42,396 bases of DNA from a bacterium (GCA_024228555.1 JAAETI010000888.1:1-42396); one strand, 5' to 3'. Numbered from the stretch's first letter, positions 398 through 12,263 are shown. A program made the numbers and translations. The notes: generated from the sequence alone by a model not told the origin.

Positions 398-1537
398 CTA
401 TGGCGACAGCACGAGTGTCGTTGACTCGGTTGGCGAGGTCTTGTCGGTTACGATCACAGTTACTTGCTCGGGCGGAATCAGATCGTTCAGGAATGCGATC
501 ACCTCTGCCAATGACCGTCCACCGATCGGCGTGACCTCAATCGTGAGGATCGGCGTTGAGGTAGACGGCGGATCGAGCTCGACGGATGATCTGTTTACGA
601 TCGCTACTTCCTCGAGCCGAAAAGCGATTGACGCTTCGATGTCGAGTGCTCTTATCTCTGAGTCATAGAGGTCAGGGCTGCCCGCCTCGTCTTGAGCGAG
701 CAAGGATCGTGTCGGGTCAACACCGGCGAGCACGGCCCCGACCGGGCTGCCGTCGCCGCCTTCAGCCACGAGGATATCGACGAGTGACCCAAGGGGGATG
801 CCTGTCAATGCCGGGTCAATGCCGATCGGGTCGGGTTGCCAGGGGCCGATAACACCCGCATCTGCGAGTGCTCGAAGCTCTAGCGCCTGCAGGTGACTGT
901 GGGGCCAGACTATCTCTTCAGCGACTCCCCAGGTTGCACTCCCGGTGAAGGATCGATAGACCGGGTCGGTGTAGCCATCGCGGAATGGCATCGGTGCTTG
1001 CTGAACGAAGAAGACACGCTGCTCGCCGACTGTGAACCCGTCTGTCCCAACAATGGGCCTCGACGAGTTCGAAGAAGGATCCCCAAGGAACCAGATGGTC
1101 AGCTCGTGTTGCGGTGGGGATGTGTCCGACCATACGACGGTGTCAACGGCCACGGTCACCGGCGTGAACACGGTTGGTGCGGTGAAACTCTGGTCAGCAC
1201 GGTCGTTCTCCCATGCCTTGCCATCGGCTGCGTTCCATTGGGGGTCACCCATACCTGAGATGGTCCCGACAACGGCGAAGTCGAACGTCTGGACCAGTTC
1301 CTCTAGACCGTAGTCCGGCATCTCGAACGTTGAATTCGCGGCGAAGTCGCGGGCGTCCTCCGAAGGGGAGTTGGCAGCGACCACGACAGTAGCGATCGTC
1401 AACGCCGCCGCGGCACTCGCCAGCACGATCGTGGGCTTCCAACGTCGGCGCCCGAGGGTGTCGTATTGTGGAGCGACTGCAGACTCCAGCGCGTCACCGA
1501 ACTGGGCTACGAATGGAATCCGGGTTGAATCGCTCAT
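398..1537 (-). CDS. one-pass membrane protein with large outer domain, partner of the ECF sigma factor (putative anti-sigma/sensor)
   Basis: The predicted protein has 379 residues. Residues 1-33 are a short cytoplasmic tail, residues 34-55 a single hydrophobic segment, and the remaining 320 or so residues an outer domain. The start at 1537 is set by a strong GGAGGAGG site. Its ATG overlaps the sigma factor's TGA (ATGA), which implies translational coupling. A short tail plus one membrane span directly downstream of an ECF sigma gene is the usual place for an anti-sigma or sensor partner, but I see no HxxxCxxC zinc anti-sigma motif. The outer domain is clearly homologous to the secreted protein at 2328-3371: both have MP(D/N)YGL, TVFTP, WFLGDPS, QRVFFV, GYTDPV and WPHSH, in the same order. 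Function is inferred from context and confidence in a sigma-regulating role is moderate. Confidence 0.8.
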   Translation of the reverse strand: MSDSTRIPFVAQFGDALESAVAPQYDTLGRRRWKPTIVLASAAAALTIATVVVAANSPSEDARDFAANSTFEMPDYGLEELVQTFDFAVVGTISGMGDPQWNAADGKAWENDRADQSFTAPTVFTPVTVAVDTVVWSDTSPPQHELTIWFLGDPSSNSSRPIVGTDGFTVGEQRVFFVQQAPMPFRDGYTDPVYRSFTGSATWGVAEEIVWPHSHLQALELRALADAGVIGPWQPDPIGIDPALTGIPLGSLVDILVAEGGDGSPVGAVLAGVDPTRSLLAQDEAGSPDLYDSEIRALDIEASIAFRLEEVAIVNRSSVELDPPSTSTPILTIEVTPIGGRSLAEVIAFLNDLIPPEQVTVIVTDKTSPTESTTLVLSP

Positions 1538-2136
1538 GTTGCCTCCTCCAATAGGTCCGCCAGCCGGTTCAATGCTCTGTGTACTCGCACCCTTGCGGCG
1601 CCTTCTGAGCATCCGAGTTGCGTGGCGACCGTTCGATAGTCGAGTTCGTCGACCACACGCAGCTCGACAGCCTTTCGCTGAGTTGGTTTGAGGTTCGCTA
1701 GAGCTGCCGCCAACGCATTGCGATACTGATCGACGTCAATCAGCCTTTCGATGCGGTCGATTGACTCACTATCGAGAGCGGGTATCTCAACGCCAAGCCG
1801 GCTGACAGCTCGGGCTTCGATGCTTCGCCTGCGTCGATACGCTGCGAGCTCCCGGCGAGCAATGCCGTACAGCCAAGCAACACCGGGGGTGCGAGTTGGC
1901 GTGTATCGCCTGCGTTTCTCGAACGCAATTGCAAACGTCTCGGCCATGACATCGGCACTCAACTGGGCGTCGAACGTCCGTCGATAGACATACGCGAGGA
2001 TTCTCTCTGCGTTTCGCTCGTACAGCTCCTGGAACGCAGAAGCCTCCGTGATCGAGGCCACGATCAGTTCGGCATCGGTGCGGCTTCCATAGGTGGGTGT
2101 GAGTGACATGGTCCCTTGAGTCATCGGCTCGTTCAT
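1534..2136 (-). CDS. ECF-type RNA polymerase sigma factor
   Basis: This is a sigma-70 family protein of about 200 residues, normal for the ECF group. Region 2 is recognisable by FQELYERNAERILAYVYRR, then DVMAETFAIAFEKR and WLYGIARREL. Region 4 is recognisable by LKPTQRKAVELRVVDELDYRTVATQLG followed by the helix-turn-helix end GAARVRVHRALNRL. It would direct RNA polymerase to a small set of promoters. The start is uncertain: in-frame ATGs lie at 2154, 2136, 2124 and 2109. I chose 2136 because a possible ECF promoter (2143-2170) ends six bases before it, as for a leaderless message; 2109 has a weak AAGGGA but the spacing is short. The stop overlaps the start of the downstream membrane protein, its likely regulator. 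Confidence 0.9.
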   Translation of the reverse strand: MNEPMTQGTMSLTPTYGSRTDAELIVASITEASAFQELYERNAERILAYVYRRTFDAQLSADVMAETFAIAFEKRRRYTPTRTPGVAWLYGIARRELAAYRRRRSIEARAVSRLGVEIPALDSESIDRIERLIDVDQYRNALAAALANLKPTQRKAVELRVVDELDYRTVATQLGCSEGAARVRVHRALNRLADLLEEAT

Positions 2137-2142
2137 CGTAGG

Positions 2143-2170
2143 TATACGGAACATCTGCCGGATCTGTTAC
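2143..2170 (-). promoter_or_regulatory. candidate ECF-type promoter for the sigma gene
   Basis: Reading the minus strand, GTAACA (2170-2165) is followed by 16 bases and CGTATA (2148-2143), then six bases and the ATG at 2136. A -35 box containing AAC with a 16-base spacer is typical of ECF promoters. The second sigma gene of the window also has GTAACA in a similar position, which suggests self-regulation. This is a pattern match only. Confidence 0.35.
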
Positions 2171-2273
2171 ACCCATTGACCGATGCGCACAACGGGAGCG
2201 AGCTCCACGCTGTGCCGGCACGAATCGGCAGGAACCGTGGTGGTCGATGATTGGCAACACCCACGCTGCAGTT

Positions 2274-2304
2274 GAGTGAGAGGGCCCTGCAGGCCCTCTC
2301 ACTC
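2274..2304 (-). terminator. 13-bp perfect hairpin after the protease operon
   Basis: GAGTGAGAGGGCC (2274-2286) and its exact complement (2292-2304) enclose a five-base loop, CTGCA. It lies 24 bases beyond the stop of the leftward gene that ends at 2328 and before the sigma gene, so it separates the two transcription units. There is no T-run on either side, as often seen in actinobacterial terminators. Confidence 0.75.
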
Positions 2305-2327
2305 GGTGGGTATTGCCCTTGCGCCAT

Positions 2328-3371
2328 TTACGGAGCGAGTAGCAGTTCGTTGGCTTGTCCCTTGCCGGTCTCAAAGATCAGCACCTTGATCTTCTCAGGC
2401 GGAATGAGTTGATCTACAAAGGCCACGACATCCGTCAGGCTCTTGTCCTCAAGTGGCGTGATCTCCACTGTGAGGACCGGCTCAGCGTCAGAGTAGGGGT
2501 CGAGTTCCAGCGACGCCTTGTCTACGGTGGCAATCTCCTCGAGAGGGATGATCACGGCCGACTCGATGTCATATGCCCGCAGGTCTGATCGCTCGGACAC
2601 CTTGATCTCCTCATCTGTCTCTTGGAGGAGGGCACGCGTATAGTCCACGTCGGCAAGGGCGAGAGCGAAGTCCGAATCTTCAGCTGTCATATCGGCGGCT
2701 AGCACCGTGCGCAGATCTTCGAGACTGACCCTCGTTACCGCGGCGTCGCCACCCTTGGGATCCGGTTGCCACGCATCAATGACTCCGGCATCTGAAAACG
2801 CACGAAGTTCCATTGCCTGTACGTGGCTGTGAGGCCACGCGGTCTGATCCTGAACACCCCAGGTGGCCATGCCGCTAAAGCTGCGATTGACGGGATCTGT
2901 GTACCCGTTCTGGAAAGGCATGGGCCCCTCGTAGACGAAGAAGACCCGCTGGTCACCTTCTCCGAATCCGTCGGACTGGGTGAGGGCCTTGGATTCGCCT
3001 GTAGAGGGGTCTCCTAGGAACCAGACCGTAAGCTCCTTGTCTGGCGATTCACCGGAAGACCAGATCGTTTCTGAGACCATGATCGTTATCGGTGTGAACA
3101 CCGTCGGACTTGTGAACTGGTTCTTGAGTGCTTCGTCCTCCCAGTGCTGGCCATCCTCAGAGTTCCATTGCGGTTCGCCGACGTGTAGAACCGTGCCAAT
3201 GACAGCGAAGTCAAAGTCGTCGGTAAGCTCTTGGAGTCCGTAGTTGGGCATCTCGTATTGAGCGCCACTGGCGGAAACCGACAACTCGCCGTTCTCCGAT
3301 AGAGCCACTGTTGTTGCGACACCTCCGATGAGGGCCCCAAGTGCGAATAGCAGAAGTACTCTTCTCATCAT
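2328..3371 (-). CDS. secreted paralogue of the sigma-linked membrane protein's outer domain
   Basis: The predicted protein has 347 residues. It starts MMRRVLLLFALGALIGG, a Sec signal peptide or single N-terminal anchor; there is no lipobox Cys. The rest aligns throughout with the outer domain of the protein at 398-1537, including the C-terminal block on L(D/I)PPE and a terminal LLLAP/LVLSP. The sigma-linked copy has a cytoplasmic tail, this one does not, so it should act outside the membrane. The start at 3371 has GAGGG eight bases upstream. It lies 12 bases behind the metalloprotease gene and is almost certainly in the same operon. I do not recognise the domain family. It could be a ligand, a competitor or a protease target of the membrane-bound copy (inference). 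Confidence 0.8.
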   Translation of the reverse strand: MMRRVLLLFALGALIGGVATTVALSENGELSVSASGAQYEMPNYGLQELTDDFDFAVIGTVLHVGEPQWNSEDGQHWEDEALKNQFTSPTVFTPITIMVSETIWSSGESPDKELTVWFLGDPSTGESKALTQSDGFGEGDQRVFFVYEGPMPFQNGYTDPVNRSFSGMATWGVQDQTAWPHSHVQAMELRAFSDAGVIDAWQPDPKGGDAAVTRVSLEDLRTVLAADMTAEDSDFALALADVDYTRALLQETDEEIKVSERSDLRAYDIESAVIIPLEEIATVDKASLELDPYSDAEPVLTVEITPLEDKSLTDVVAFVDQLIPPEKIKVLIFETGKGQANELLLAP

Positions 3372-3383
3372 TGCTTCACCCTC

Positions 3384-4481
3384 TTATCCGAAGTCTGAAT
3401 CGATTTGGTCTACCCCGATGGTTCCAGTGTGATGAGGCTCACCCAGACTCCAATTCCGGATGTAGATCCTCACGTCCGCGACGTACGTGTTGACTGTGTC
3501 AAGGTCACCATGCGAGCAGGTCGACCACGTTGAGCCCGAAATGGTGTCTGTGCACCACGGGCCATAGCTATAGACATACGATCCCAAGGAACCGTTAGAG
3601 CTGACAGTATTCGACCTGACCATCGTCTTGACCTTCATCCCCGTGGAATAGGTCAAACCCCGATACTTGAATGAGAGGCTCGGATCCTGTCGGTCCTGTC
3701 GGTGATCAACGGTCATCCGGGTCGTCATGTACATGTAGCCGTAAGCGCTGCTAGAGGACTTGGAGAGGCACAGATAGCTACCACAGTCCCACAGACTTCC
3801 GCCCCCCGCTCCCCAATACCCCACACTAGACGCGTAGTAGCCCTGGATCAGGACGTTCTTGGACGTGACGAACTCTCCACCGGATCGGTCATCCTGCCGA
3901 AGCGTCCGACGGCTGACCGCCTTCTTGGCTTGGCCATACATCATGACAGGGTTCTGCCCGTCCCAGCTCTTTTCTGGGTAGGTGTTGTTGAATTCCGGGT
4001 GCTTCAAGCCGAGGCCGTGGCCCAACTCGTGGCTTGCAGTCGACTGGAAGTCGTACTTCCCCGAGGGGATTGTGCTGCTCGATCCGAAATACCAGGGGAT
4101 CGCGCCATTGGTACCATTTTCGGCAAAACGAATCCACACCGCCCCATTTGTGCCAGTCCCCGTGCGGCCAAGTGCACCGCCGAGGTCCGTCACCCAGTCG
4201 ATCTCTATCTTTGCGACAGGACAGACGCTCGAAACGGTGTCATGGTTGATGTTCAGCGAGTACGCAACAGCCTCCCAGTGAGCTACCGCGGCATTCACCC
4301 GAGCCTTCTCGAGGGGATCCCAATCTGTTCCTGTGAAGCAGGTCTCAATCTCATCCGAGGCGTAATGATGCTGATCGAAAGCCTCGGCGCGAAGCGGGTT
4401 TAGAACAGCCAACGCTGCGCCAAGCCCAAGACCGAGTAGTAGAGCGACTGCATATCGGCTAGCTCTTTCAGAGAACACCAC
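3384..4481 (-). CDS. secreted matrixin-type zinc metalloprotease
   Basis: The protein has 365 residues. Residues 9-34 form a signal peptide ending ...LRAEA. The catalytic zinc motif HELGHGLGLKH (residues 151-161) matches the metzincin consensus HExxHxxGxxH exactly. It is followed by NPVMMYG (177-183), which supplies the Met-turn. This places it in the M10 matrixin-like peptidases, acting outside the cell. The C-terminal 170 residues (rich in Ser, Tyr and Gly, with several Cys) are not recognised and may be a binding or beta-rich domain. The start is GTG at 4481 with AAGGTGG upstream. It is the first gene of a two-gene leftward operon with the secreted ectodomain protein. I see no obvious propeptide cysteine switch. 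Confidence 0.88.
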   Translation of the reverse strand: MVFSERASRYAVALLLGLGLGAALAVLNPLRAEAFDQHHYASDEIETCFTGTDWDPLEKARVNAAVAHWEAVAYSLNINHDTVSSVCPVAKIEIDWVTDLGGALGRTGTGTNGAVWIRFAENGTNGAIPWYFGSSSTIPSGKYDFQSTASHELGHGLGLKHPEFNNTYPEKSWDGQNPVMMYGQAKKAVSRRTLRQDDRSGGEFVTSKNVLIQGYYASSVGYWGAGGGSLWDCGSYLCLSKSSSSAYGYMYMTTRMTVDHRQDRQDPSLSFKYRGLTYSTGMKVKTMVRSNTVSSNGSLGSYVYSYGPWCTDTISGSTWSTCSHGDLDTVNTYVADVRIYIRNWSLGEPHHTGTIGVDQIDSDFG

Positions 4482-5006: not shown

Positions 5007-5540
5007 ATGACTGGTTCGTTCGTACAAGCACTGGCCGGAGTGGTGTTGGCGAGTTCCTTGGGAGCGGTGCCGTCAACCGGCGCAGAGCAGCATTGTGTGG
5101 TGGAGGTAGTCGGCCAGTCGAAGGGTGGCGAGTTGATAACCGCCGAGCCGGTGTGTTTCTCAACGTTTTCGGACGCGATGCGTTCTGCATCGGAAGGCGA
5201 GTTGATCCTTCCTCGAGGAGTTGACGGCGACGTTGTGCTTTCGAGTGGCGATGTGGCGCGGGCGGTCTCTTCGTTTGCCATCGGCATCCACTACGACGGG
5301 TATGGCGGTAGCGGCAGCTCAATCACAATCACGGGTTCGAATTGCTCGGGTGGGTATTGGAACGCAACCGGATTCTGGAAGGACAGGATCCGGTCGTCAT
5401 ACAACGGCTGCCCGAAGCTACGTCACTATACGAACAAGAATAGGCAGGGTAGCTCGCAGACAACGTCTCCTGCAGGCCAAACCCACAATCTGGGGTCGAC
5501 CCTGGCAGGACGTGTCGAGTCGGTTCAGTATTCGTCCTAA
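5007..5540 (+). CDS. small secreted protein with betagamma-crystallin-like C-terminus
   Basis: The protein has 177 residues. GGAGGA (4995-5000) lies six bases before the ATG. Residues 4-26 are hydrophobic and end in an AEQ-type cleavage site; the signal peptide is unusual in lacking N-terminal Lys or Arg. The C-terminal 85 residues show the rhythm of a betagamma-crystallin-like fold: IHYDGYGGSG, then W.DRI.SS...GCPKLRHYTNKN..G, then NLG......RVESVQY. Four cysteines (30, 50, 113, 135) could form two disulfides. The fold is shared by proteinase inhibitors of the I36 type and by small secreted binding proteins. With a secreted metalloprotease gene next door, an inhibitor role is attractive but unproven. 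The N-terminal 85 residues are not recognised. Confidence 0.7.
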   Translation: MTGSFVQALAGVVLASSLGAVPSTGAEQHCVVEVVGQSKGGELITAEPVCFSTFSDAMRSASEGELILPRGVDGDVVLSSGDVARAVSSFAIGIHYDGYGGSGSSITITGSNCSGGYWNATGFWKDRIRSSYNGCPKLRHYTNKNRQGSSQTTSPAGQTHNLGSTLAGRVESVQYSS

Positions 5541-5597: not shown

Positions 5598-5625
5598 GTA
5601 ACAGCCCCGATTGTGTACTCCGACT
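5598..5625 (+). promoter_or_regulatory. candidate ECF-type promoter for the second sigma gene
   Basis: GTAACA (5598-5603) is followed by 16 bases and CCGACT (5620-5625), five bases before an in-frame GTG at 5631. The GTAACA and the spacer match the candidate promoter of the other ECF gene at 2143-2170. If real, the sigma factor would start at 5631 on a nearly leaderless message. Confidence 0.3.
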
Positions 5626-6179
5626 CTGATGTGATTGCGGCGTCGCTAGACGATCCCGATCGTTTTGGCGAAATCTACGATCGGTACAGCCGCCGCGTCT
5701 TTGGGTACGTCGTTCGCAGGATCCCAAGAGAGGACGCCGCCGACATCACCGGGGATATCTTCCTACGAGCCTTCCGATTTCGTCACAAGTTCGATCTGAA
5801 ACGCTCCGCAGCTCTCCCCTGGCTGCTCGGTATCGCAACCAACGTAATCGGCGAGTACCTCCGCAAACGTACCCGCCGGACCAGGATCGGCCTCCGAGCC
5901 GATACCTTCTCGAATCCACCCATAGATGACATTGCCACTGCTCGTGCGGACGCAGCCAGAGCCTGGCCCGCCCTAGAAGCGACCTTGGGTCGCCTGAAAC
6001 CAAGAGACCGCTCCGTGCTGATCCTCTTCGCGATCGAGGACATGTCGTATCAAGAGATAAGCGACGCGCTGCAGGTCCCAGTGGGCACTGTCAGGTCACG
6101 ATTGCATCGAGCACGTACCCAAGCCGGTGAACTGCTCGGCGCTTCGGGGCAAACACCATACGATGAGGGACAACTGTGA
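5613..6179 (+). CDS. ECF-type RNA polymerase sigma factor (second)
   Basis: The protein has 188 residues. Region 2 is seen in FGEIYDRYSRRVFGYVVRR, DAADITGDIFLRAF and WLLGIATNVIGEYLR. Region 4 is seen in LKPRDRSVLILFAIEDMSYQEISDAL followed by VPVGTVRSRLHRAR. The GTG at 5613 gives the longest frame; GTG at 5631 is also possible and is favoured by the candidate promoter. No Shine-Dalgarno site precedes either. The stop overlaps the GTG of the next gene (GTGA), so the pair is translationally coupled, the standard layout for an ECF sigma factor and its regulator. It is not a close copy of the first sigma factor. Confidence 0.9.
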   Translation: MYSDSDVIAASLDDPDRFGEIYDRYSRRVFGYVVRRIPREDAADITGDIFLRAFRFRHKFDLKRSAALPWLLGIATNVIGEYLRKRTRRTRIGLRADTFSNPPIDDIATARADAARAWPALEATLGRLKPRDRSVLILFAIEDMSYQEISDALQVPVGTVRSRLHRARTQAGELLGASGQTPYDEGQL

Positions 6180-7177
6180 GTAGGCCCCAAGACGACAAAC
6201 ATGTCGATGCGATGCTGCGCCATCTGGCCGGCGACGATGCGCCGCCAACGGACGACGAGCTGACGTTGGCGCGGGCCAAACTTGATGCAGCAATCCTCGC
6301 AGAGACCACATCTCAAAGCCATCGCAGAGCTCGTGGACTGCCCCGTCGGCCATTGGTCGCTGCCGTGGGCATGGCTTTGGTCGTTGCCGTGGTTGCCGGC
6401 AGCGTCTTAGTGGCCAGACCAGCACCGCTCGCCGCCGCTTTGGCCGAATATGCCGAGGTAGTGCTCGAGACCGAACCCTTGGAGCCCGTCGAGGGCGAGT
6501 TCATTCTCCAAACCACCGAGCTAGCTCAGCTAGTCATTGTCGACGGTTCGCTGCTCGAACTCGACGCGCCTGAGATTGCCTACATCATCATCGAACAACG
6601 CAAGACCTGGGTAGGAGCGGACGGCATCATCCAAATGGCCAGCACACCAACCGAAACACGGTTCTTCTCCGGAGCAACCGCAGCCGCCTACGAGAACGCC
6701 AACATGGCTGAGTTCGACGACATCGGTATGACAACCACCGTTCGCCAAGAAGGCGACGACCTATCCGCGCTACCAACCGACGTAGAAGCCCTGGAGGCAT
6801 TCCTACGTGAGCAGATCCGCCTCGGAGGCACCGAACTCCCCGAGGACGTACTGCTCTATGACGAACTGGCGTCCATACTCGGAGATCCCGTCGCCCCACC
6901 CGAAGTCCGAGCCGCAGCAGCACTAACACTGAACTCGATCGACGGTATCGAGCTTGTCCAAAAGAACGAAACACAGATCGTCGTTGCGCTGGAATACCTA
7001 GACCCAATCCGGGTGCGCCACACACTCGAACTTGACCTATCGGCGTCGCAACTAACCCAGAACACGACACAGCTTCTCGAGGACCACGGCATCCTCGGTA
7101 TTCCAGCCAGCACAATCATCAACCAGACGAACCACGACCGCCTCGTAGTCACAACCGATCGGCCGCCGACCAGCTAG
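6176..7177 (+). CDS. one-pass membrane protein of CU044_5270 type, partner of the second ECF sigma factor
   Basis: The protein has 333 residues. The cytoplasmic part, about residues 1-58, is rich in Asp and Arg. A single membrane span follows (about 60-80, LVAAVGMALVVAVVAGSVLVA). The outer part is about 250 residues and mostly acidic. The arrangement and the ectodomain (LEPVEGEFILQTTE..., a run on LPTDVEALEAFLREQI, and a Val-rich C-terminus) fit the actinobacterial CU044_5270 family that usually follows ECF sigma genes. The GTG start overlaps the sigma stop. It probably senses something outside the membrane and restrains or activates the sigma factor (inference). It has no visible similarity to the membrane protein at 398-1537, so the two sigma systems are independent. 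Confidence 0.8.
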   Translation: MSRPQDDKHVDAMLRHLAGDDAPPTDDELTLARAKLDAAILAETTSQSHRRARGLPRRPLVAAVGMALVVAVVAGSVLVARPAPLAAALAEYAEVVLETEPLEPVEGEFILQTTELAQLVIVDGSLLELDAPEIAYIIIEQRKTWVGADGIIQMASTPTETRFFSGATAAAYENANMAEFDDIGMTTTVRQEGDDLSALPTDVEALEAFLREQIRLGGTELPEDVLLYDELASILGDPVAPPEVRAAAALTLNSIDGIELVQKNETQIVVALEYLDPIRVRHTLELDLSASQLTQNTTQLLEDHGILGIPASTIINQTNHDRLVVTTDRPPTS

Positions 7178-7353: not shown

Positions 7354-10155
7354 TCAGCGGCCTATGGCGAGGTCGACGCCTGATGCCTGCCGTTCTGCTT
7401 CGGCTCGCTCCATCCGGCGTTTGGCGATCTGCCAGGCGACCCGAGCGGCGATGTCGCTGCTGGGCGGAGGCGGGCCGAGAGAATCGAGGTCGTCGCTTTG
7501 CGTCGGCCCGGCTTGGTCGATGGCGGCGGTCTGGCTTCGGCTGCGTCTGAGGGTGGCGGTGAGACCATCGAGAGGATCGTGGTGACTGATGTGGGTCAGA
7601 TGGAGGCACTGTTCGTCTGACTGCTGGAGGTTGGTGAGGTAGAGCGTGTTGGCTTGCCGACCGCGGCTCATCGCCACATAGAACCATTCCCGATCTGTGG
7701 TGCCGGTCACGACGACGAAGGTGCGGCCGGTGGTGACACCTTGGGCCTTGTGGCCGGTCATTGCGTAGCCGTAGTCGACATGACCCTCGTTGAGGTACCA
7801 CGCAGGAAGCTCACGGGTGTCTTGGCCGCGGTCGAGGCTAACCGTCAGGCCCCCTGTTTCCTGGTCGACACACATGACTGTGGCTAGGTCGCCGTTGAGT
7901 ACTCCGAGTCGCTGCTGGTTGTTACGGCATAGGATCCGGTCACCGGCTTGTAAGACACGGTCCCCGAACTCAAGGGTGGGTCCGTAGAGCCGTGTCGATG
8001 CGGCGAGGTGGGTGCGGGCTTGTTGGTTGAGCTCGGCGACGGTGTCGTTGTCGTGGGCGATGAGTAACCCCGTAGTGAGGTCACCGGTGGCTGTGACATG
8101 GTGATACCAGTCGTCGACTGCCCGTGTGGTTGTGTCGTCACGGTTCTGTCCGATGATGAGTCGCTGGTGATCGCAGTATTCGTTGATCGCTTTGTCGACT
8201 GATCCGTCTCGGAGTTCGGTGAGTGCCGCCCGTTCCCAAGGGTGTTGCTGGCGGATGTTGTCGGTCAGTTCGACCGCTGGTAGCCGGTTGGTGAGGGCTC
8301 GGAATAAGCCTCCGGCGTCTATTTCGGGTAGTTGACGGTGGTCACCGATGAGGATCAGCTTGCCTCCAGCGGCTTCTGTGAGGTCGGCGACGGTGGCGAG
8401 TTGGCGGGTGCCGACCATGCCTGCCTCGTCAACCACCACAACCGCACCCCGGGGGAGGCCGCCTTGTTGTTGGCTTTTGCCGATTACGCGGGTGAGGGTG
8501 CTCGACGGGATCCCGGTAGCCGATTGCAGCCCAGCCGCAGTACGGCCAGCCAGTGCCGCCCCGACGATGTTGGTTCCGGTCATCATCGCCAATTCTCCGA
8601 TCACCGTCATGACAGCGGTCTTGCCAGTACCCGCCGGCCCCACCCCAATGTCGATGGCGCTGCTTGAGGTGGCGAATTGTCGCACCATTTCCTGTTGTCC
8701 TTCGGTGAGGTGCCGGTGACGTCGCAATCGTCGTTCGACTAGGCGGTTGGGTGCGGTCCACCTGCCGGCATTCAGGCCGGAGGTGGCTTGTTCGATGACC
8801 CGCTGCTCAATGCCCAACAACTCGGCAGCGGTGTATTGGCGGTGCACGGTGCCTGGGAACGCCGTGCCGTCGCGTCGTCGCATCGGACGGCACCCAGTGT
8901 CGGCGACACTGGGTTGGTCGATCGCTGCGGGTTCGACCTCGGTGAGGTCTTCGGCCAAATCGGCTTGCTCGACATCTCGTCCGCCTATGAGCGGTATGAC
9001 TTCTTTGGTGCCGAGGAACGTCTCGGCGAGGGCTTCGACTTGGTCTCGGGTGCCACCGTCCGGCAAAGCCGCTGCCACTTCCTTGATGACTTCGGCTTGT
9101 CCGAAGGTGGAGGCTTGTGCGGTGAGCCCATCCGGTGATGCAAGACTGCCGAACAGCTCATGTGGATCGGGCTGTTGCGTCTCACTGCTGTGGCCCATCA
9201 TCCTGCAAAGCCGATCCGGGGTGAGACCAACATCAATAGCCCGCTGCCGCCACTCGACTTCGAGCTCGGCGAGGGGGTTCTCTTGTTTGGGGCTGCGGGT
9301 GGCCAACACTGCGACCTGCCGGGCTGCCGGCGTATCGGGGAGGCCCTGTTCTTGTCGCCACGTTTCAAGCTGGCGGCGGCGTCGAGAGAACACCTCGACC
9401 TGGCGTCGGGTGAACCCTTCGATATCGGCCATGCCGTTGTGGACCGGCTGCCAACCAACACCCAACCGCTCAGTCAGCTCCTTGCGCAACACGGCTTCGT
9501 GGAGATAGCCAGCAGCCAACTGATGGCGATACAACAAACGTCCGTCAATGGTGCGCCACACCTCATCCATGCCTTTGACCTTGTTGGCCACCACCACATG
9601 AGTGTGGAGTTGAGGGTCATCTGCTCGTGAGGTGAACTCGGTGAACGATGCCGCCACATATCCCGACGTGGCGATCGGCCACGTCTCCACCCGAAACTTC
9701 GGGATCCCGTTCGCATCGAGCACCGGGTCGCCGTCGTCGTCGAGCACAGGTGTCTTGGTGGCACCCCGGGTCGATGATGCAACCGACTCCAGATATCCGA
9801 ACGCTGACATGGTGGCCTCGTCGAACGCTGCCAACACCTGGCGCCGGGTCTGCTCGTCGCCGAGGGCCCACAACAGTGAAACGGACTTGTCCGCCGAGAA
9901 GGTCACATCCCACGCCGCCACCCCATCGCGCCGCAAACTACGACCCAACTGCTCACCGGTACCGGGGTGCTGACCATCGAACAACCGCACCAAGCCCTCA
10001 GCAGTCACCCTCCCCGACAAGCCCAACTCGGCGGCACCGCGCCCCTGCCACATCCCGGTAGCGGTACCACCCCGCAAGTAGTAATCCTCCCCACGTGAAA
10101 TCTCTCCCAGCTTGCGCAGGTAGTAGTCCTTGGCAGCCTTGGCCAGACTCAACAT
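7354..10155 (-). CDS. MobF/TrwC-type conjugative relaxase-helicase
   Basis: The protein has 933 residues. An N-terminal TrwC relaxase domain (about 1-300) begins MLSLAKAAKDYYL with candidate nicking tyrosines Y11/Y12 and Y25/Y26. It continues with AWDVTFSADKSVSLLWAL (81-98) and the metal-site block TSRADDPQLHTH (175-186). The helicase part has Walker A GPAGTGKT (Lys512) and Walker B VVVVDEAGM (Asp576-Glu577), and ends with the GHKAQG-type motif of SF1 helicases. It would nick oriT, attach to the strand and unwind it during transfer. One oddity is that the position where many MobF proteins have the first metal-binding His (two residues after the Phe before TSR) is Glu173. No type IV secretion or coupling genes are present, so transfer would need a helper. 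Confidence 0.92.
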   Translation of the reverse strand: MLSLAKAAKDYYLRKLGEISRGEDYYLRGGTATGMWQGRGAAELGLSGRVTAEGLVRLFDGQHPGTGEQLGRSLRRDGVAAWDVTFSADKSVSLLWALGDEQTRRQVLAAFDEATMSAFGYLESVASSTRGATKTPVLDDDGDPVLDANGIPKFRVETWPIATSGYVAASFTEFTSRADDPQLHTHVVVANKVKGMDEVWRTIDGRLLYRHQLAAGYLHEAVLRKELTERLGVGWQPVHNGMADIEGFTRRQVEVFSRRRRQLETWRQEQGLPDTPAARQVAVLATRSPKQENPLAELEVEWRQRAIDVGLTPDRLCRMMGHSSETQQPDPHELFGSLASPDGLTAQASTFGQAEVIKEVAAALPDGGTRDQVEALAETFLGTKEVIPLIGGRDVEQADLAEDLTEVEPAAIDQPSVADTGCRPMRRRDGTAFPGTVHRQYTAAELLGIEQRVIEQATSGLNAGRWTAPNRLVERRLRRHRHLTEGQQEMVRQFATSSSAIDIGVGPAGTGKTAVMTVIGELAMMTGTNIVGAALAGRTAAGLQSATGIPSSTLTRVIGKSQQQGGLPRGAVVVVDEAGMVGTRQLATVADLTEAAGGKLILIGDHRQLPEIDAGGLFRALTNRLPAVELTDNIRQQHPWERAALTELRDGSVDKAINEYCDHQRLIIGQNRDDTTTRAVDDWYHHVTATGDLTTGLLIAHDNDTVAELNQQARTHLAASTRLYGPTLEFGDRVLQAGDRILCRNNQQRLGVLNGDLATVMCVDQETGGLTVSLDRGQDTRELPAWYLNEGHVDYGYAMTGHKAQGVTTGRTFVVVTGTTDREWFYVAMSRGRQANTLYLTNLQQSDEQCLHLTHISHHDPLDGLTATLRRSRSQTAAIDQAGPTQSDDLDSLGPPPPSSDIAARVAWQIAKRRMERAEAERQASGVDLAIGR

Positions 10156-10494
10156 CCGCGACCCCCACCTGCGGCCGCATGTATACGCCGGGCAACTCGT
10201 TGCAGATGCGTGTGTGATTCATGCTGGCTGATCCGAGAAATGTCAGTAGTGGCGTCATCGTGACTGCGAGGTCTGGGTGCATCGGTCAAAGAGCGGTCGT
10301 AGATGCTAGGGACGTTGTGCAGTCCGTTGCACTGGTTGTGGGACTCGCATCGTCGGATCCGGTCCGGGGTCCCTGAGAAAGCTGGTAGCCCCCGACGACC
10401 TGACCCAACCATGGATTCAACAGCACCGGCAGCATCCGCCGGCAGGCCAGCGACGATCCGGGTTCGAACCTTGATGATCTCTGGGAGTTGAACC
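10156..10494. other. relaxase upstream region without a supported gene
   Basis: The relaxase is read leftward from 10155, with AGGTGGGGG upstream, and the small genes at 10495/10731 are read rightward, so this holds divergent promoters. In MobF elements oriT is usually close to the relaxase gene, so it probably lies here or just to the right. Two leftward ORFs cover much of the stretch (10149-10586 and 10286-10612), but they overlap each other in different frames and resemble nothing I know, so I do not call them. Confidence 0.35.
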
Positions 10495-10734
10495 ATGGCC
10501 CCAACCAGACACCACAACCCTTTAGCCAGAGTTTCAGCAACCCTTGAACTTCGCTCGGGGAATGCGTCGCAAAACCAAAACAACAAACCTTGTCAGAGGT
10601 CCGAGGAACCACCTTCTCAAACCGGCAGGTTGCCTCTGACCTGGCGAAACAATCGAAATGCCATTGGAGTTAAACCCCAATTACATTCAGAATGCATTGG
10701 AGTTAAAGGGTTGAGCAACAGAATGAGGGAATGA
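10495..10734 (+). CDS. possible small basic protein upstream of the excisionase-like gene
   Basis: A 79-residue frame starts at an ATG with GGGAG (10483-10487) seven bases upstream. It ends in a TGA that overlaps the ATG of the HTH gene at 10731 (ATGA), a layout expected for coupled translation. The protein is rich in Arg, Asn, Gln and Ser and matches no family I know. Part of its sequence (two IGVK units) comes from the direct repeat in the DNA, which argues for caution. It may instead be a leader region with a repeat that happens to be open. Confidence 0.3.
   Translation: MAPTRHHNPLARVSATLELRSGNASQNQNNKPCQRSEEPPSQTGRLPLTWRNNRNAIGVKPQLHSECIGVKGLSNRMRE
10592..10640. repeat. inverted repeat GTCAGAGG / CCTCTGAC, candidate oriT or regulator site
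   Basis: GTCAGAGG (10592-10599) and its complement CCTCTGAC (10633-10640) are 33 bases apart. AACC and GGTT inside them could add a second short stem. The repeat lies between the relaxase and excisionase-like genes, preceded by an A/C-rich tract (AAAACCAAAACAACAAACC). Inverted repeats beside a relaxase gene are typical of oriT, but no nic site can be assigned by eye. Confidence 0.3.
10657..10707. repeat. direct repeat CATTGGAGTTAAA, possible iteron or excisionase site
   Basis: AATGCCATTGGAGTTAAA (10657-10674) recurs as AATGCATTGGAGTTAAA (10691-10707), one base shorter. The spacer contains CCAATTACATTC, which together with GAATGCATTGG forms an imperfect palindrome (about 10678-10700). The second copy ends 24 bases before the HTH gene. 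Paired repeats like this suit binding by an excisionase/repressor or the integrase accessory sites. Confidence 0.55.
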
Positions 10735-10916
10735 AATCCCTCGACGGCCTCGTGACCATCCAAGAACTCGCCAACAGCCTGGGTGTGCCCGTCGCCACCA
10801 TCTACACCTGGCGATACCAACACCAAGGCCCACCCGGATTCCGTGTCGGCAAACACCTACGCTTCCGCTGGAGCGATATAGACAGCTGGATCGCGCAGCA
10901 GCGGGAGCCTGTGTAG
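10731..10916 (+). CDS. excisionase-like HTH DNA-binding protein
   Basis: The protein has 61 residues, almost entirely one winged-helix/MerR-like helix-turn-helix of the HTH_17 type. The line is VTIQELANSLGVPVATIYTWRYQ, a Gly-rich wing (GPPGFRVGKHLRF), and RWSDIDSWIAQQRE. Such proteins next to tyrosine integrases act as excisionases or as repressors of the element. The ATG at 10731 sits directly against GAGGGA, too close for normal initiation, so it may be translated by coupling to the frame that ends at 10734, or start at a GTG a few codons later. The gene lies about 100 bases before the integrase. Confidence 0.85.
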   Translation: MKSLDGLVTIQELANSLGVPVATIYTWRYQHQGPPGFRVGKHLRFRWSDIDSWIAQQREPV

Positions 10917-11018
10917 ACCAAGAATGTCGCCCGTTCCTCCTCCAGCGTCGTCACGGGCAGCGTGTAGCGTTGAACCATCGGCGGGAGCGACACTCGGGCC
11001 GACGAAGGGAGACTGATC

Positions 11019-12176
11019 GTGGGGTCAATTCGAAAGCGATCTGACCGATCGAAGCCGTATCAGGCCCGCTATCGGGCTCCGGACGGGCAGGAGCGGACCC
11101 GCTCATTCCGGCGCAAGGTCGACGCCGAGCGTTGGCTACTGGAACGCGAACGCGACAAGGCGCGAGGAGACTGGGTGGACCCTGCCCTCGGGCGAATGGT
11201 GTTCAGCGAATGGGCCAGCGATGTCGAGGCAACACGTCTCAATCGCCGGCCATCCTCGCGAGCAAGAGATCAGAGCTTGCTACGAAGCCTCATCCTCCCA
11301 GAGTTTGGCGATCAACCACTTGCCAGCGTCGATCCGATGGACATCCGTCGGTGGATCGTTGGTCTGGAAGAACGCGGGTACGCAGCGGCAACGATCGGCA
11401 AGGCATACCAGATCGTAACGCGAGCCTTTCGAGTCGCGGTTACAGATGGCATCATTTCTCGATCTCCGTGTCGGGAGGTCAAGCTTCCCAAGATCGAAAC
11501 CCCTGAGAGGCGCTTCCTCTCGGCAACCGAGGTCGAGGAGCTGGCTGACTCAATCGATGCCCTCTATCGGACACTGGTGCTCACCGGCGCCTACACAGGT
11601 CTGCGTTTCGGAGAGATGGCAGCGCTGCGCACCGACGACCTCGATCCGCTGCGGCGAACCCTGCGGATCGATGAGCAGCTCTCTCGGCAGGGAACCAGCC
11701 AAATGGTCTCGAGCCCACTCAAGACCCGCAAAGCCCGACGCTCGATCGGCATCCCACAATTCCTAGCCGACGAACTCGTCGCACACCTACCCGCCTATCC
11801 CTCGTCATCGGACCTGATCTTCTCCATGCCCCAGGGAGGTCCACTCGACTACAACCGATTCCGCTCCCGATACTGGAACCCTGCAGTGGAGGCGTCGATT
11901 GGACGCCCGTGCACGCCACACGACCTCCGACACACCCACGTAGCGATGCTGATCGCGCAAGGAGAGTCGCCAAAATACATCGCGGATCGGCTCGGCCATG
12001 AGAGCACTCGAACCGTTTTCGACGTCTACGGGCACCTTTATGAAGGGGTAGATGAGGCCGCCACAGACCGTCTCGAACAGCTCAGAAGTGTTTCACGCGC
12101 GGACCAGGCGCGGACCAAACGTGGTCCAGAGGTCGTCGAGCTCTCCAGCAGAAAGCCCGAATCCCTTGCGACATAA
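11019..12176 (+). CDS. tyrosine recombinase integrase
   Basis: The protein has 385 residues. An N-terminal AP2-like arm-binding part (SIRKRSDRSKPYQARYRAPDG) is followed by a SAM-like core-binding domain (about 60-155) and a catalytic domain. All active-site residues are visible: Arg196 in TGLRFGE, Lys235 or Lys238, His301-x-x-Arg304 in HDLRHTH, His327 in LGHEST, and the nucleophile Tyr337 in FDVYGHL. The GTG start at 11019 is supported by AAGGGAG seven bases upstream. Its last bases form one arm of a terminator-like hairpin, and the gene ends beside the 3' end of tRNA-Val, the probable attachment site. It would insert and excise the element. Confidence 0.95.
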   Translation: MGSIRKRSDRSKPYQARYRAPDGQERTRSFRRKVDAERWLLERERDKARGDWVDPALGRMVFSEWASDVEATRLNRRPSSRARDQSLLRSLILPEFGDQPLASVDPMDIRRWIVGLEERGYAAATIGKAYQIVTRAFRVAVTDGIISRSPCREVKLPKIETPERRFLSATEVEELADSIDALYRTLVLTGAYTGLRFGEMAALRTDDLDPLRRTLRIDEQLSRQGTSQMVSSPLKTRKARRSIGIPQFLADELVAHLPAYPSSSDLIFSMPQGGPLDYNRFRSRYWNPAVEASIGRPCTPHDLRHTHVAMLIAQGESPKYIADRLGHESTRTVFDVYGHLYEGVDEAATDRLEQLRSVSRADQARTKRGPEVVELSSRKPESLAT

Positions 12177-12187
12177 GGGATTCGGGC
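12155..12187. terminator. 13-bp perfect hairpin overlapping the integrase stop codon
   Basis: GCCCGAATCCCTT (12155-12167) pairs exactly with 12175-12187 around the loop GCGACAT. The stem includes the last codons of the integrase and its TAA. It ends two bases from the 3' end of the tRNA, so it can serve as terminator for both the integrase (rightward) and the tRNA (leftward). Confidence 0.75.
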
Positions 12188-12189
12188 GG

Positions 12190-12263
12190 TGGGCGTTACC
12201 GGACTCGAACCGATGACCTCTTCCTTGTAAGGGAAGCGCTCTAGCCAACTGAGCTAAACGCCC
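12190..12263 (-). tRNA. tRNA-Val (anticodon UAC)
   Basis: The minus strand folds as a complete 74-base cloverleaf. The acceptor arm is GGGCGTT/AACGCCC, the D arm GCTC...GAGC, the anticodon arm CTTCC-CTTACAA-GGAAG with anticodon TAC, and the T arm ATCGG/CCGGT (approximate pairing) around TTCGAGT. The discriminator is A. The 3' CCA is not encoded (the next bases are CCG). A possible -10 box, TAATGT, lies upstream on the minus strand (12287-12282). The gene is intact, so an inserted element would have restored its 3' end. Confidence 0.95.

What the first reader, a model, noticed from the sequence alone, without database searches (positions are those of the whole stretch)
398..4481. ECF sigma factor with a membrane partner whose outer domain is duplicated as a secreted protein, beside a secreted metalloprotease
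The sequence shows two homologous ectodomains: one on a one-pass membrane protein translationally coupled to an ECF sigma gene, the other with only a signal peptide, in an operon with a matrixin-like protease carrying HELGHGLGLKH and a Met-turn. Established knowledge is that ECF partners sense outside signals and are often controlled by proteolysis. I infer that the secreted copy may be a ligand, decoy or protease substrate that tunes the sigma system. I do not recognise the ectodomain family, so this may be an undescribed signalling set.
Basis: partly seen in the sequence, partly recalled or inferred. Interest (0 to 1): 0.75.

Follow-up and report, generated by a model that had tools for sequence, protein, structure and literature searches.

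The report
Bacterial TIMP-like protein paired with metalloprotease
A mobile stretch of DNA in an uncultured actinobacterium carries a secreted metalloprotease next to a secreted protein predicted to fold like the animal metalloprotease inhibitors (TIMPs), and a second copy of that inhibitor-like domain is mounted on the membrane partner of a gene-switching sigma factor, which suggests that the cell reads out its own protease.

Summary
On the minus strand lie a secreted metzincin (3384-4481), a secreted ectodomain protein 12 bp downstream (2328-3371), and a separate ECF sigma (1534-2136) overlapping a one-pass membrane protein (398-1537). The two ectodomains are 47% identical. Pfam and NCBIfam do not recognise it, and it has no cysteines, so it cannot use the TIMP Cys1 mechanism. 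Homologues found by profile sit directly beside a metzincin gene in about 19 of 36 cases in Actinomycetota (strict motif: 10 observed, 0.06 expected). Such pairs are a known kind, Listeria Mtz-Tim (PMC8235301), also carried on mobile elements; here a MobF relaxase, integrase and tRNA-Val lie nearby. New here is the TIMP-like domain on an ECF sigma partner. Close relatives of that sigma have partners with a similar cytoplasmic motif and TM but unrelated ectodomains, so the domain looks swapped in. I infer that the membrane copy senses the protease and the secreted copy buffers it; nothing functional is shown.

The parts
398..1537 (-). membrane partner of the ECF sigma: about 35-aa cytoplasmic part with IPFVAQFGDALESAV, RRR, one TM (about residues 37-55), TIMP/NTR-like ectodomain plus a C-terminal region; no Cys
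914..1324 (-). core of the NTR/TIMP-like domain in the membrane partner
   Evidence: 57% identical to the core of the secreted copy
1534..2136 (-). ECF sigma factor; stop overlaps start of the membrane partner (ATGA)
2274..2304 (-). 14-bp perfect hairpin between the two transcription units, terminator-like but with no T-run
   Evidence: z -5.1; one search found no T-tailed terminator
2328..3371 (-). secreted TIMP/NTR-like protein (347 aa), signal peptide, no Cys, no lipobox
2682..3254 (-). NTR/TIMP-like OB-fold domain of the secreted protein (about residues 40-230)
   Evidence: AlphaFold model md37d80e76c12, VIA rank 1 TIMP-1 Z 9.3
3384..4481 (-). secreted metzincin (matrixin-like) protease, 365 aa
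   Evidence: (Peptidase_M10 E 3.7e-4, below Pfam cut-off)
3999..4031 (-). HELGHGLGLKH zinc-binding motif
3939..3944 (-). Met-turn methionines (NPVMMYG)
5007..5540 (+). small secreted Cys-containing protein, weakly like metalloproteinase inhibitor family I36; divergent neighbour of the protease
   Evidence: E 0.006, below cut-off
5613..6179 (+). second ECF sigma
6176..7177 (+). membrane partner of the second ECF sigma (CU044_5270-like)
   Evidence: E 1.7e-16, below the NCBIfam cut-off
7354..10155 (-). MobF/TrwC relaxase-helicase
   Evidence: TrwC E 1e-73
10731..10916 (+). excisionase-like HTH_17 protein
   Evidence: E 2e-12
11019..12176 (+). tyrosine integrase
   Evidence: Phage_integrase E 6e-17
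12188..12263 (-). tRNA-Val, probable integration target next to the integrase

Best explanation
This is a metzincin/TIMP-like (Mtz-Tim type) pair, most likely carried by an integrated mobilizable element, with its own sensor-regulator. P0003 is a secreted metzincin. P0002 is its cognate secreted partner with an NTR/TIMP-like OB-fold that binds the protease and restrains or controls it, by a loop or wedge mode rather than by TIMP's Cys1 zinc chelation. P0001 is the membrane partner of the ECF sigma P0004: a short cytoplasmic motif and one TM tether or hold the sigma, and a duplicated copy of the TIMP-like domain has replaced the usual ectodomain. Free protease binds or clips the membrane-anchored copy and thereby changes the state of the sigma; soluble P0002 competes for protease and sets the threshold. 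Shown: gene order, homology of the ectodomains, recurrent adjacency to metzincins, mobile-element genes nearby, and a similar sigma-partner tail with other ectodomains in relatives. Predicted: the fold. Inferred: protease binding, inhibition or cleavage, sigma control, and the sign of the response.
For: Fold: two models from proteins 22% identical both hit the NTR/TIMP superfamily at the top (TIMP-1 from the MT1-MMP complex, Z 9.3, rmsd 3.1, 115 aa; N-TIMP-3 from the TACE complex, Z 9.5, rmsd 2.9 over 119 of 121 residues, and all 50 listed rows are TIMP, agrin NtA, PCOLCE or meteorin NTR, or complement proteins matched in their C345C region). Linkage: the family, found by profile without regard to neighbours, is directly beside a metzincin-type gene in about 19 of 36 cases; strict HExxHxxGxxH sites within 1.5 kb on the same strand 10, expected 0.06, Poisson P 2e-19. 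Sigma partner: P0004 relatives (44-54% identical) have partners with a similar N-terminal motif and TM but other ectodomains. Duplication: core domains 57% identical to each other, at most 24% to the rest. Mobile context: MobF, HTH_17, integrase, tRNA-Val; integrase, MobF and a tRNA also beside the pair in G071, MobF also near family members in G011 and G329. Precedent: PMC8235301.
Against: No activity data. No TIMP Cys1 (no cysteines) and no Pfam TIMP/NTR sequence match. The P0002 model is of moderate confidence (mean pLDDT 58.6; Foldseek TM-scores about 0.5 by target), and Z near 9 is only modestly above the level seen for unrelated models. In Listeria the reported biochemistry is cleavage of Tim by Mtz, not inhibition. 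No shared ECF promoter motif was found upstream of the two units. The sigma plus NTR-partner arrangement was seen once. The left end of the element lies beyond the contig, so its extent is unproven.
Confidence: 0.45

Rival explanations
1. Listeria-type effector model: the metzincin's job is to cleave the TIMP-like protein, and the released or soluble domain (with or without the protease) acts on the cell envelope of the producer and neighbours. In the window the membrane-anchored form is P0001, so cleavage would both shed the ectodomain and switch the sigma, while P0002 is a pre-soluble copy rather than an inhibitor.
For: In Listeria Mtz cleaves Tim about 50 residues from its N-terminus and both are needed for cell-wall sensitisation. 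P0001 has a linker of about 15-20 residues between TM and domain. Firmicutes Tim homologues are SPI-secreted like P0002.
Against: No phenotype known here; Listeria Tim was not compared by sequence; two copies are more than that model needs.
Confidence: 0.25
2. Bystander model: the metzincin/TIMP-like pair and the ECF sigma operon are separate cargo of the element; the sigma partner simply recruited the nearby domain for another ligand and does not sense the protease.
For: Separate transcription units with a hairpin between; no shared promoter motif found; a second, different ECF pair lies on the same segment.
Against: The partner's ectodomain is the paralogue of the protease's own partner, 12 bp from the protease gene.
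Confidence: 0.2
3. Chaperone model: P0002 is a foldase or secretion helper or a trans-acting pro-domain for the metzincin rather than an inhibitor.
For: Tight gene coupling with the protease and conservation of the pair would fit.
Against: Predicted fold is that of inhibitors and NTR binding domains; does not explain the copy on the sigma partner.
Confidence: 0.1

Closest known systems
Listeria monocytogenes Mtz-Tim pair (LMRG_00713/00714; PMC8235301) and its Firmicutes relatives
   Same: secreted metzincin with HExxHxxGxxH/D and Met-turn; partner gene immediately downstream with predicted TIMP-like structure; SPI-secreted form known in Firmicutes; association with integrases and ICE or phage genes
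   Different: regulated by CI/Cro-like repressors, not an ECF sigma; no TIMP-like domain on a sigma partner described; Listeria Tim is a lipoprotein; no sequence relation tested; other phylum
Tannerella forsythia KLIKK protease/potempin system (PMC7296668; OB-fold of PotA recalled from memory, not tested)
   Same: small secreted or surface protein encoded next to its cognate protease; bicistronic logic; reported inhibitory activity against the co-expressed protease
   Different: Bacteroidota, potempin gene precedes the protease, proteases bear a KLIKK C-terminal end absent here, no sigma link
Animal TIMPs with matrixins
   Same: predicted NTR/OB-fold of the partner; matrixin-like protease
   Different: no Cys1-x-Cys3, no disulfides, no detectable sequence similarity; genes adjacent; one copy membrane-anchored on a sigma partner
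ECF sigma factors with one-pass membrane partners (anti-sigma-like)
   Same: ATGA overlap, short cytoplasmic part, single TM, variable ectodomain
   Different: ectodomain is TIMP-like and duplicated as a soluble protein beside a protease; no known anti-sigma domain detected

Membership tests
Mtz-Tim type metzincin/TIMP-like pair | secreted metzincin with HExxHxxGxxH/D and Met-turn | tested here: met
   N-terminal hydrophobic stretch, HELGHGLGLKH, NPVMMYG
Mtz-Tim type metzincin/TIMP-like pair | partner gene immediately beside the protease, structure similar to TIMP | tested here: met
   12-bp gap; fold by prediction only
Mtz-Tim type metzincin/TIMP-like pair | association with mobile elements | tested here: met
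   MobF, integrase, HTH_17, tRNA-Val; far end of the element not on the contig
Mtz-Tim type metzincin/TIMP-like pair | metzincin cleaves its Tim | not testable with these tools
   needs biochemistry
Mtz-Tim type metzincin/TIMP-like pair | sequence homology to Listeria Tim | not tested
   no Listeria Tim sequence retrieved; no metzincin motif in the 10-kb stretch of phage A118 examined; tblastn of a family member against phages gave nothing
TIMP (inhibitor family I35) | N-terminal Cys1-x-Cys3 that chelates the catalytic zinc | tested here: not met
   no cysteine in P0001 or P0002
TIMP (inhibitor family I35) | NTR/OB-fold N-domain | tested here: met
   predicted structures only
TIMP (inhibitor family I35) | match to Pfam TIMP or NTR | tested here: not met
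   none at E up to 1
Matrixin M10 protease | HExxHxxGxxH/D and Met-turn | tested here: met
Matrixin M10 protease | Pfam Peptidase_M10 above gathering score | tested here: not met
   20.8 bits against 24; best called a matrixin-like metzincin
ECF sigma with membrane partner | sigma-70 r2 and r4, coupled one-pass membrane protein | tested here: met
ECF sigma with membrane partner | known anti-sigma domain in the partner | tested here: not met
   no Pfam or NCBIfam match; only a short motif shared with partners of related sigmas
ECF sigma with membrane partner | partner binds and controls the sigma | not testable with these tools
   needs experiment
KLIKK protease/potempin system | protease ends in KLIKK | tested here: not met
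   P0003 ends IDSDFG
KLIKK protease/potempin system | potempin OB-fold homology | tested here: inconclusive
   no potempin row among the listed Foldseek or VIA matches, which does not exclude it

The most novel reading that the evidence does not exclude
A TIMP-fold domain serves as the extracellular receptor of an ECF sigma system: the cell senses its own secreted metzincin through a membrane-anchored copy of the cognate inhibitor-like domain, with a soluble copy setting the threshold, and the whole protease-homeostasis circuit travels on a mobilizable element.
Probability: 0.4. Interest if true: 0.75.

Novelty: new variant of a known kind. Interest (0 to 1): 0.6.

Why it matters
It ties a fold known from animal metalloprotease inhibitors to bacterial metzincin genes across many actinobacterial loci, giving a recognisable family where the protein family libraries searched show none, and it extends the bacterial pair characterised in Listeria (Mtz-Tim) to another phylum. 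If the sigma link holds, it would be a direct protease-sensing input to transcription, testable with four genes, and would help explain why mobile elements carry protease/inhibitor-like pairs.

Tried and rejected
Pfam, NCBIfam and PHROGs gave no family for the ectodomain; a profile against PDB sequences gave only chance hits. Single-protein searches for P0002 found only distant loci or nothing; viral contigs and phages gave none. Conserved-stretch search with a 10-row alignment could not run. A first metzincin DNA pattern was mistyped by one N and is disregarded; the correct one is. Upstream regions of the two units and of related sigmas showed no common ECF promoter. No second copy of the tRNA-Val end inside the window, so the element's left boundary is not on the contig. 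The Listeria phage A118 stretch examined has no metzincin. A full-length profile search of the order gave many hits to signal peptides only; it was replaced by a core-domain profile. Apparent NTR-like neighbours of further metzincins score weakly (best E 5e-4, next three 0.05-0.09) and are not counted in the adjacency figure.

Full report
Observation. The four genes are real and on the minus strand. The secreted metzincin (3384-4481) and the secreted ectodomain protein (2328-3371) are 12 bp apart; the ECF sigma (1534-2136) and one-pass membrane partner (398-1537) overlap by ATGA. A perfect 14-bp hairpin at 2274-2304 lies between the two units. The two ectodomain proteins are 47% identical over 344 aa; in the core domain they are 57% identical to each other and at most 24% to any other relative, so they are a lineage-specific duplication. 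Neither contains a cysteine, so P0002 has no lipobox.

What the ectodomain is. No curated family recognises it. The strand pattern and the metzincin neighbour suggested an NTR/TIMP domain before any model was made (note). AlphaFold of P0002 (6-sequence alignment; mean pLDDT 58.6, core 70-85) gave agrin NtA, complement C345C and meteorin NTR among the top Foldseek rows, and TIMP-1 from the MT1-MMP complex as VIA rank 1 (Z 9.3, rmsd 3.1, 115 residues; model residues 39-228). The homologue from G038 (22% identical to P0002; pLDDT 69, core 80-95) gave N-TIMP-3 from the TACE complex as rank 1 (Z 9.5, rmsd 2.9, 119 of 121 residues), and all fifty listed rows were NTR-superfamily domains. Absolute Foldseek E-values are modest (6e-4 and 6e-3); the weight lies in the consistency. 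The two models share the same six sequences as alignment, so they are not fully independent. The TIMP Cys1 mechanism is excluded for these two proteins. The PxWNxxDGxxW motif, invariant in the six closest sequences, falls in the connection between the first and second strand, which corresponds to the AB loop that in TIMPs touches the protease (the last point from general knowledge; that loop is poorly predicted here).

The protease. HExxHxxGxxH and Met-turn are present; Peptidase_M10 scores just under its cut-off; the PDB profile hits of its family are weak and mostly serralysins, MMPs and other metzincins, with some antibody chains. I call it a matrixin-like metzincin.

Recurrence. A core-domain profile (A6) was searched in 395 genomes of the class and 396 of the phylum. 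Of 36 family members, about 19 have a metzincin-type gene on the same strand within about 100 bp, usually protease first, in three loci ectodomain first (G071, G038:C29, G030:C143). With the strict motif and the genomes' own background of 75 sites in 51 Mb, 10 adjacent cases stand against 0.06 expected, P 2e-19. A caution: sixteen of the members built the profile, and these were found by searches that began with the window's own protein. Further metzincins without a profile hit are followed by secreted proteins with a similar look; the four best-scoring of 740 ORFs in those loci were immediate downstream neighbours (P 4e-7 with a rough count of 20 such neighbours), though their scores are weak. 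The pair extends beyond the class (G413, G565, G582, G637).

The sigma partner. The closest sigma relatives (44-54% identical: G009, G028, G021, G050) are each followed by a one-pass membrane protein with a similar short cytoplasmic motif (about [FY]L..L..ELE.A) and TM, but with ectodomains unrelated to P0001. P0001 thus looks like a standard partner into which the TIMP-like domain was swapped. ECF sigma genes also lie beside an NTR and/or metzincin gene at G011:C70 (sigma, one-pass partner, metzincin, NTR, MobF), G008:C31 and own contig C690, but no other NTR domain on a sigma partner was seen. Because ECF genes are common, these neighbourhoods alone are weak evidence (my rough estimate is about one by chance).

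Mobile element. To the right are a second ECF pair, a MobF/TrwC relaxase, an HTH_17 excisionase-like protein, a tyrosine integrase and, about 11 bp beyond it, tRNA-Val. G071 has the pair beside tRNA, integrase and MobF; G011 and G329 also have MobF nearby. Two sigma relatives lie near integrases, and their partners are 98.6% identical between genomes of different genera, pointing to transfer.

Comparison with the known. Boichis et al. 2021 (PMC8235301) describe a Listeria metzincin and TIMP-like lipoprotein pair, consistently paired across Gram-positive bacteria, near integrases and phage or ICE genes, with SPI-secreted Tim in other Firmicutes; Mtz cleaves Tim, and the pair sensitises cells to wall-acting agents. 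The window pair meets the features of that kind that could be tested here. Tannerella potempins (PMC7296668) show the same inhibitor/protease logic. New is the coupling of the TIMP-like domain to an ECF sigma.

Mechanism. Most likely the protease is bound by the soluble copy and either bound or clipped at the membrane copy, so that the sigma reports free protease. The order of events, inhibition versus cleavage, and the sign are inference. The rival in which the TIMP-like domain is the released effector, as in Listeria, remains open, as does the possibility that the sigma operon is independent cargo.

Verdict. A real, well-supported pair of a known kind with a new regulatory variant; interest 0.6.

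Noticed in passing
window 5613-7177 (+): A second ECF sigma overlapping a CU044_5270-like membrane partner lies between the protease and the relaxase; relatives of this pair occur in several related genomes.
   Followed up: partly
window 5007-5540 (+): Small secreted protein, divergent from the protease gene, with a weak match to metalloproteinase inhibitor family I36 (E 0.006): possibly a second, unrelated inhibitor at the same locus.
   Followed up: partly
window 7354-12263: MobF relaxase, HTH_17 protein, tyrosine integrase and tRNA-Val in a row: right end of an integrative mobilizable element whose left end is off the contig.
   Followed up: partly
L007:7756-9737 (G038:C29): Two tandem TIMP-like lipoproteins (60% identical) precede one metzincin.
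   Followed up: no
L098:2342-4052 (G000:C690, own genome): Another metzincin/TIMP-like pair in the same genome, with an ECF sigma upstream; its third zinc ligand position reads E (HEMGHVVGLGE).
   Followed up: partly
L134:3714-6346 and L135:2996-5760: Sigma partners 98.6% identical (residues 76-650) between two genera, each near an integrase: recent transfer of a sigma cassette.
   Followed up: no
L021:2077-3414 and L022:1961-2770: Genes upstream of two family members share an EELGHVQNITH stretch, perhaps a degenerate protease.
   Followed up: no
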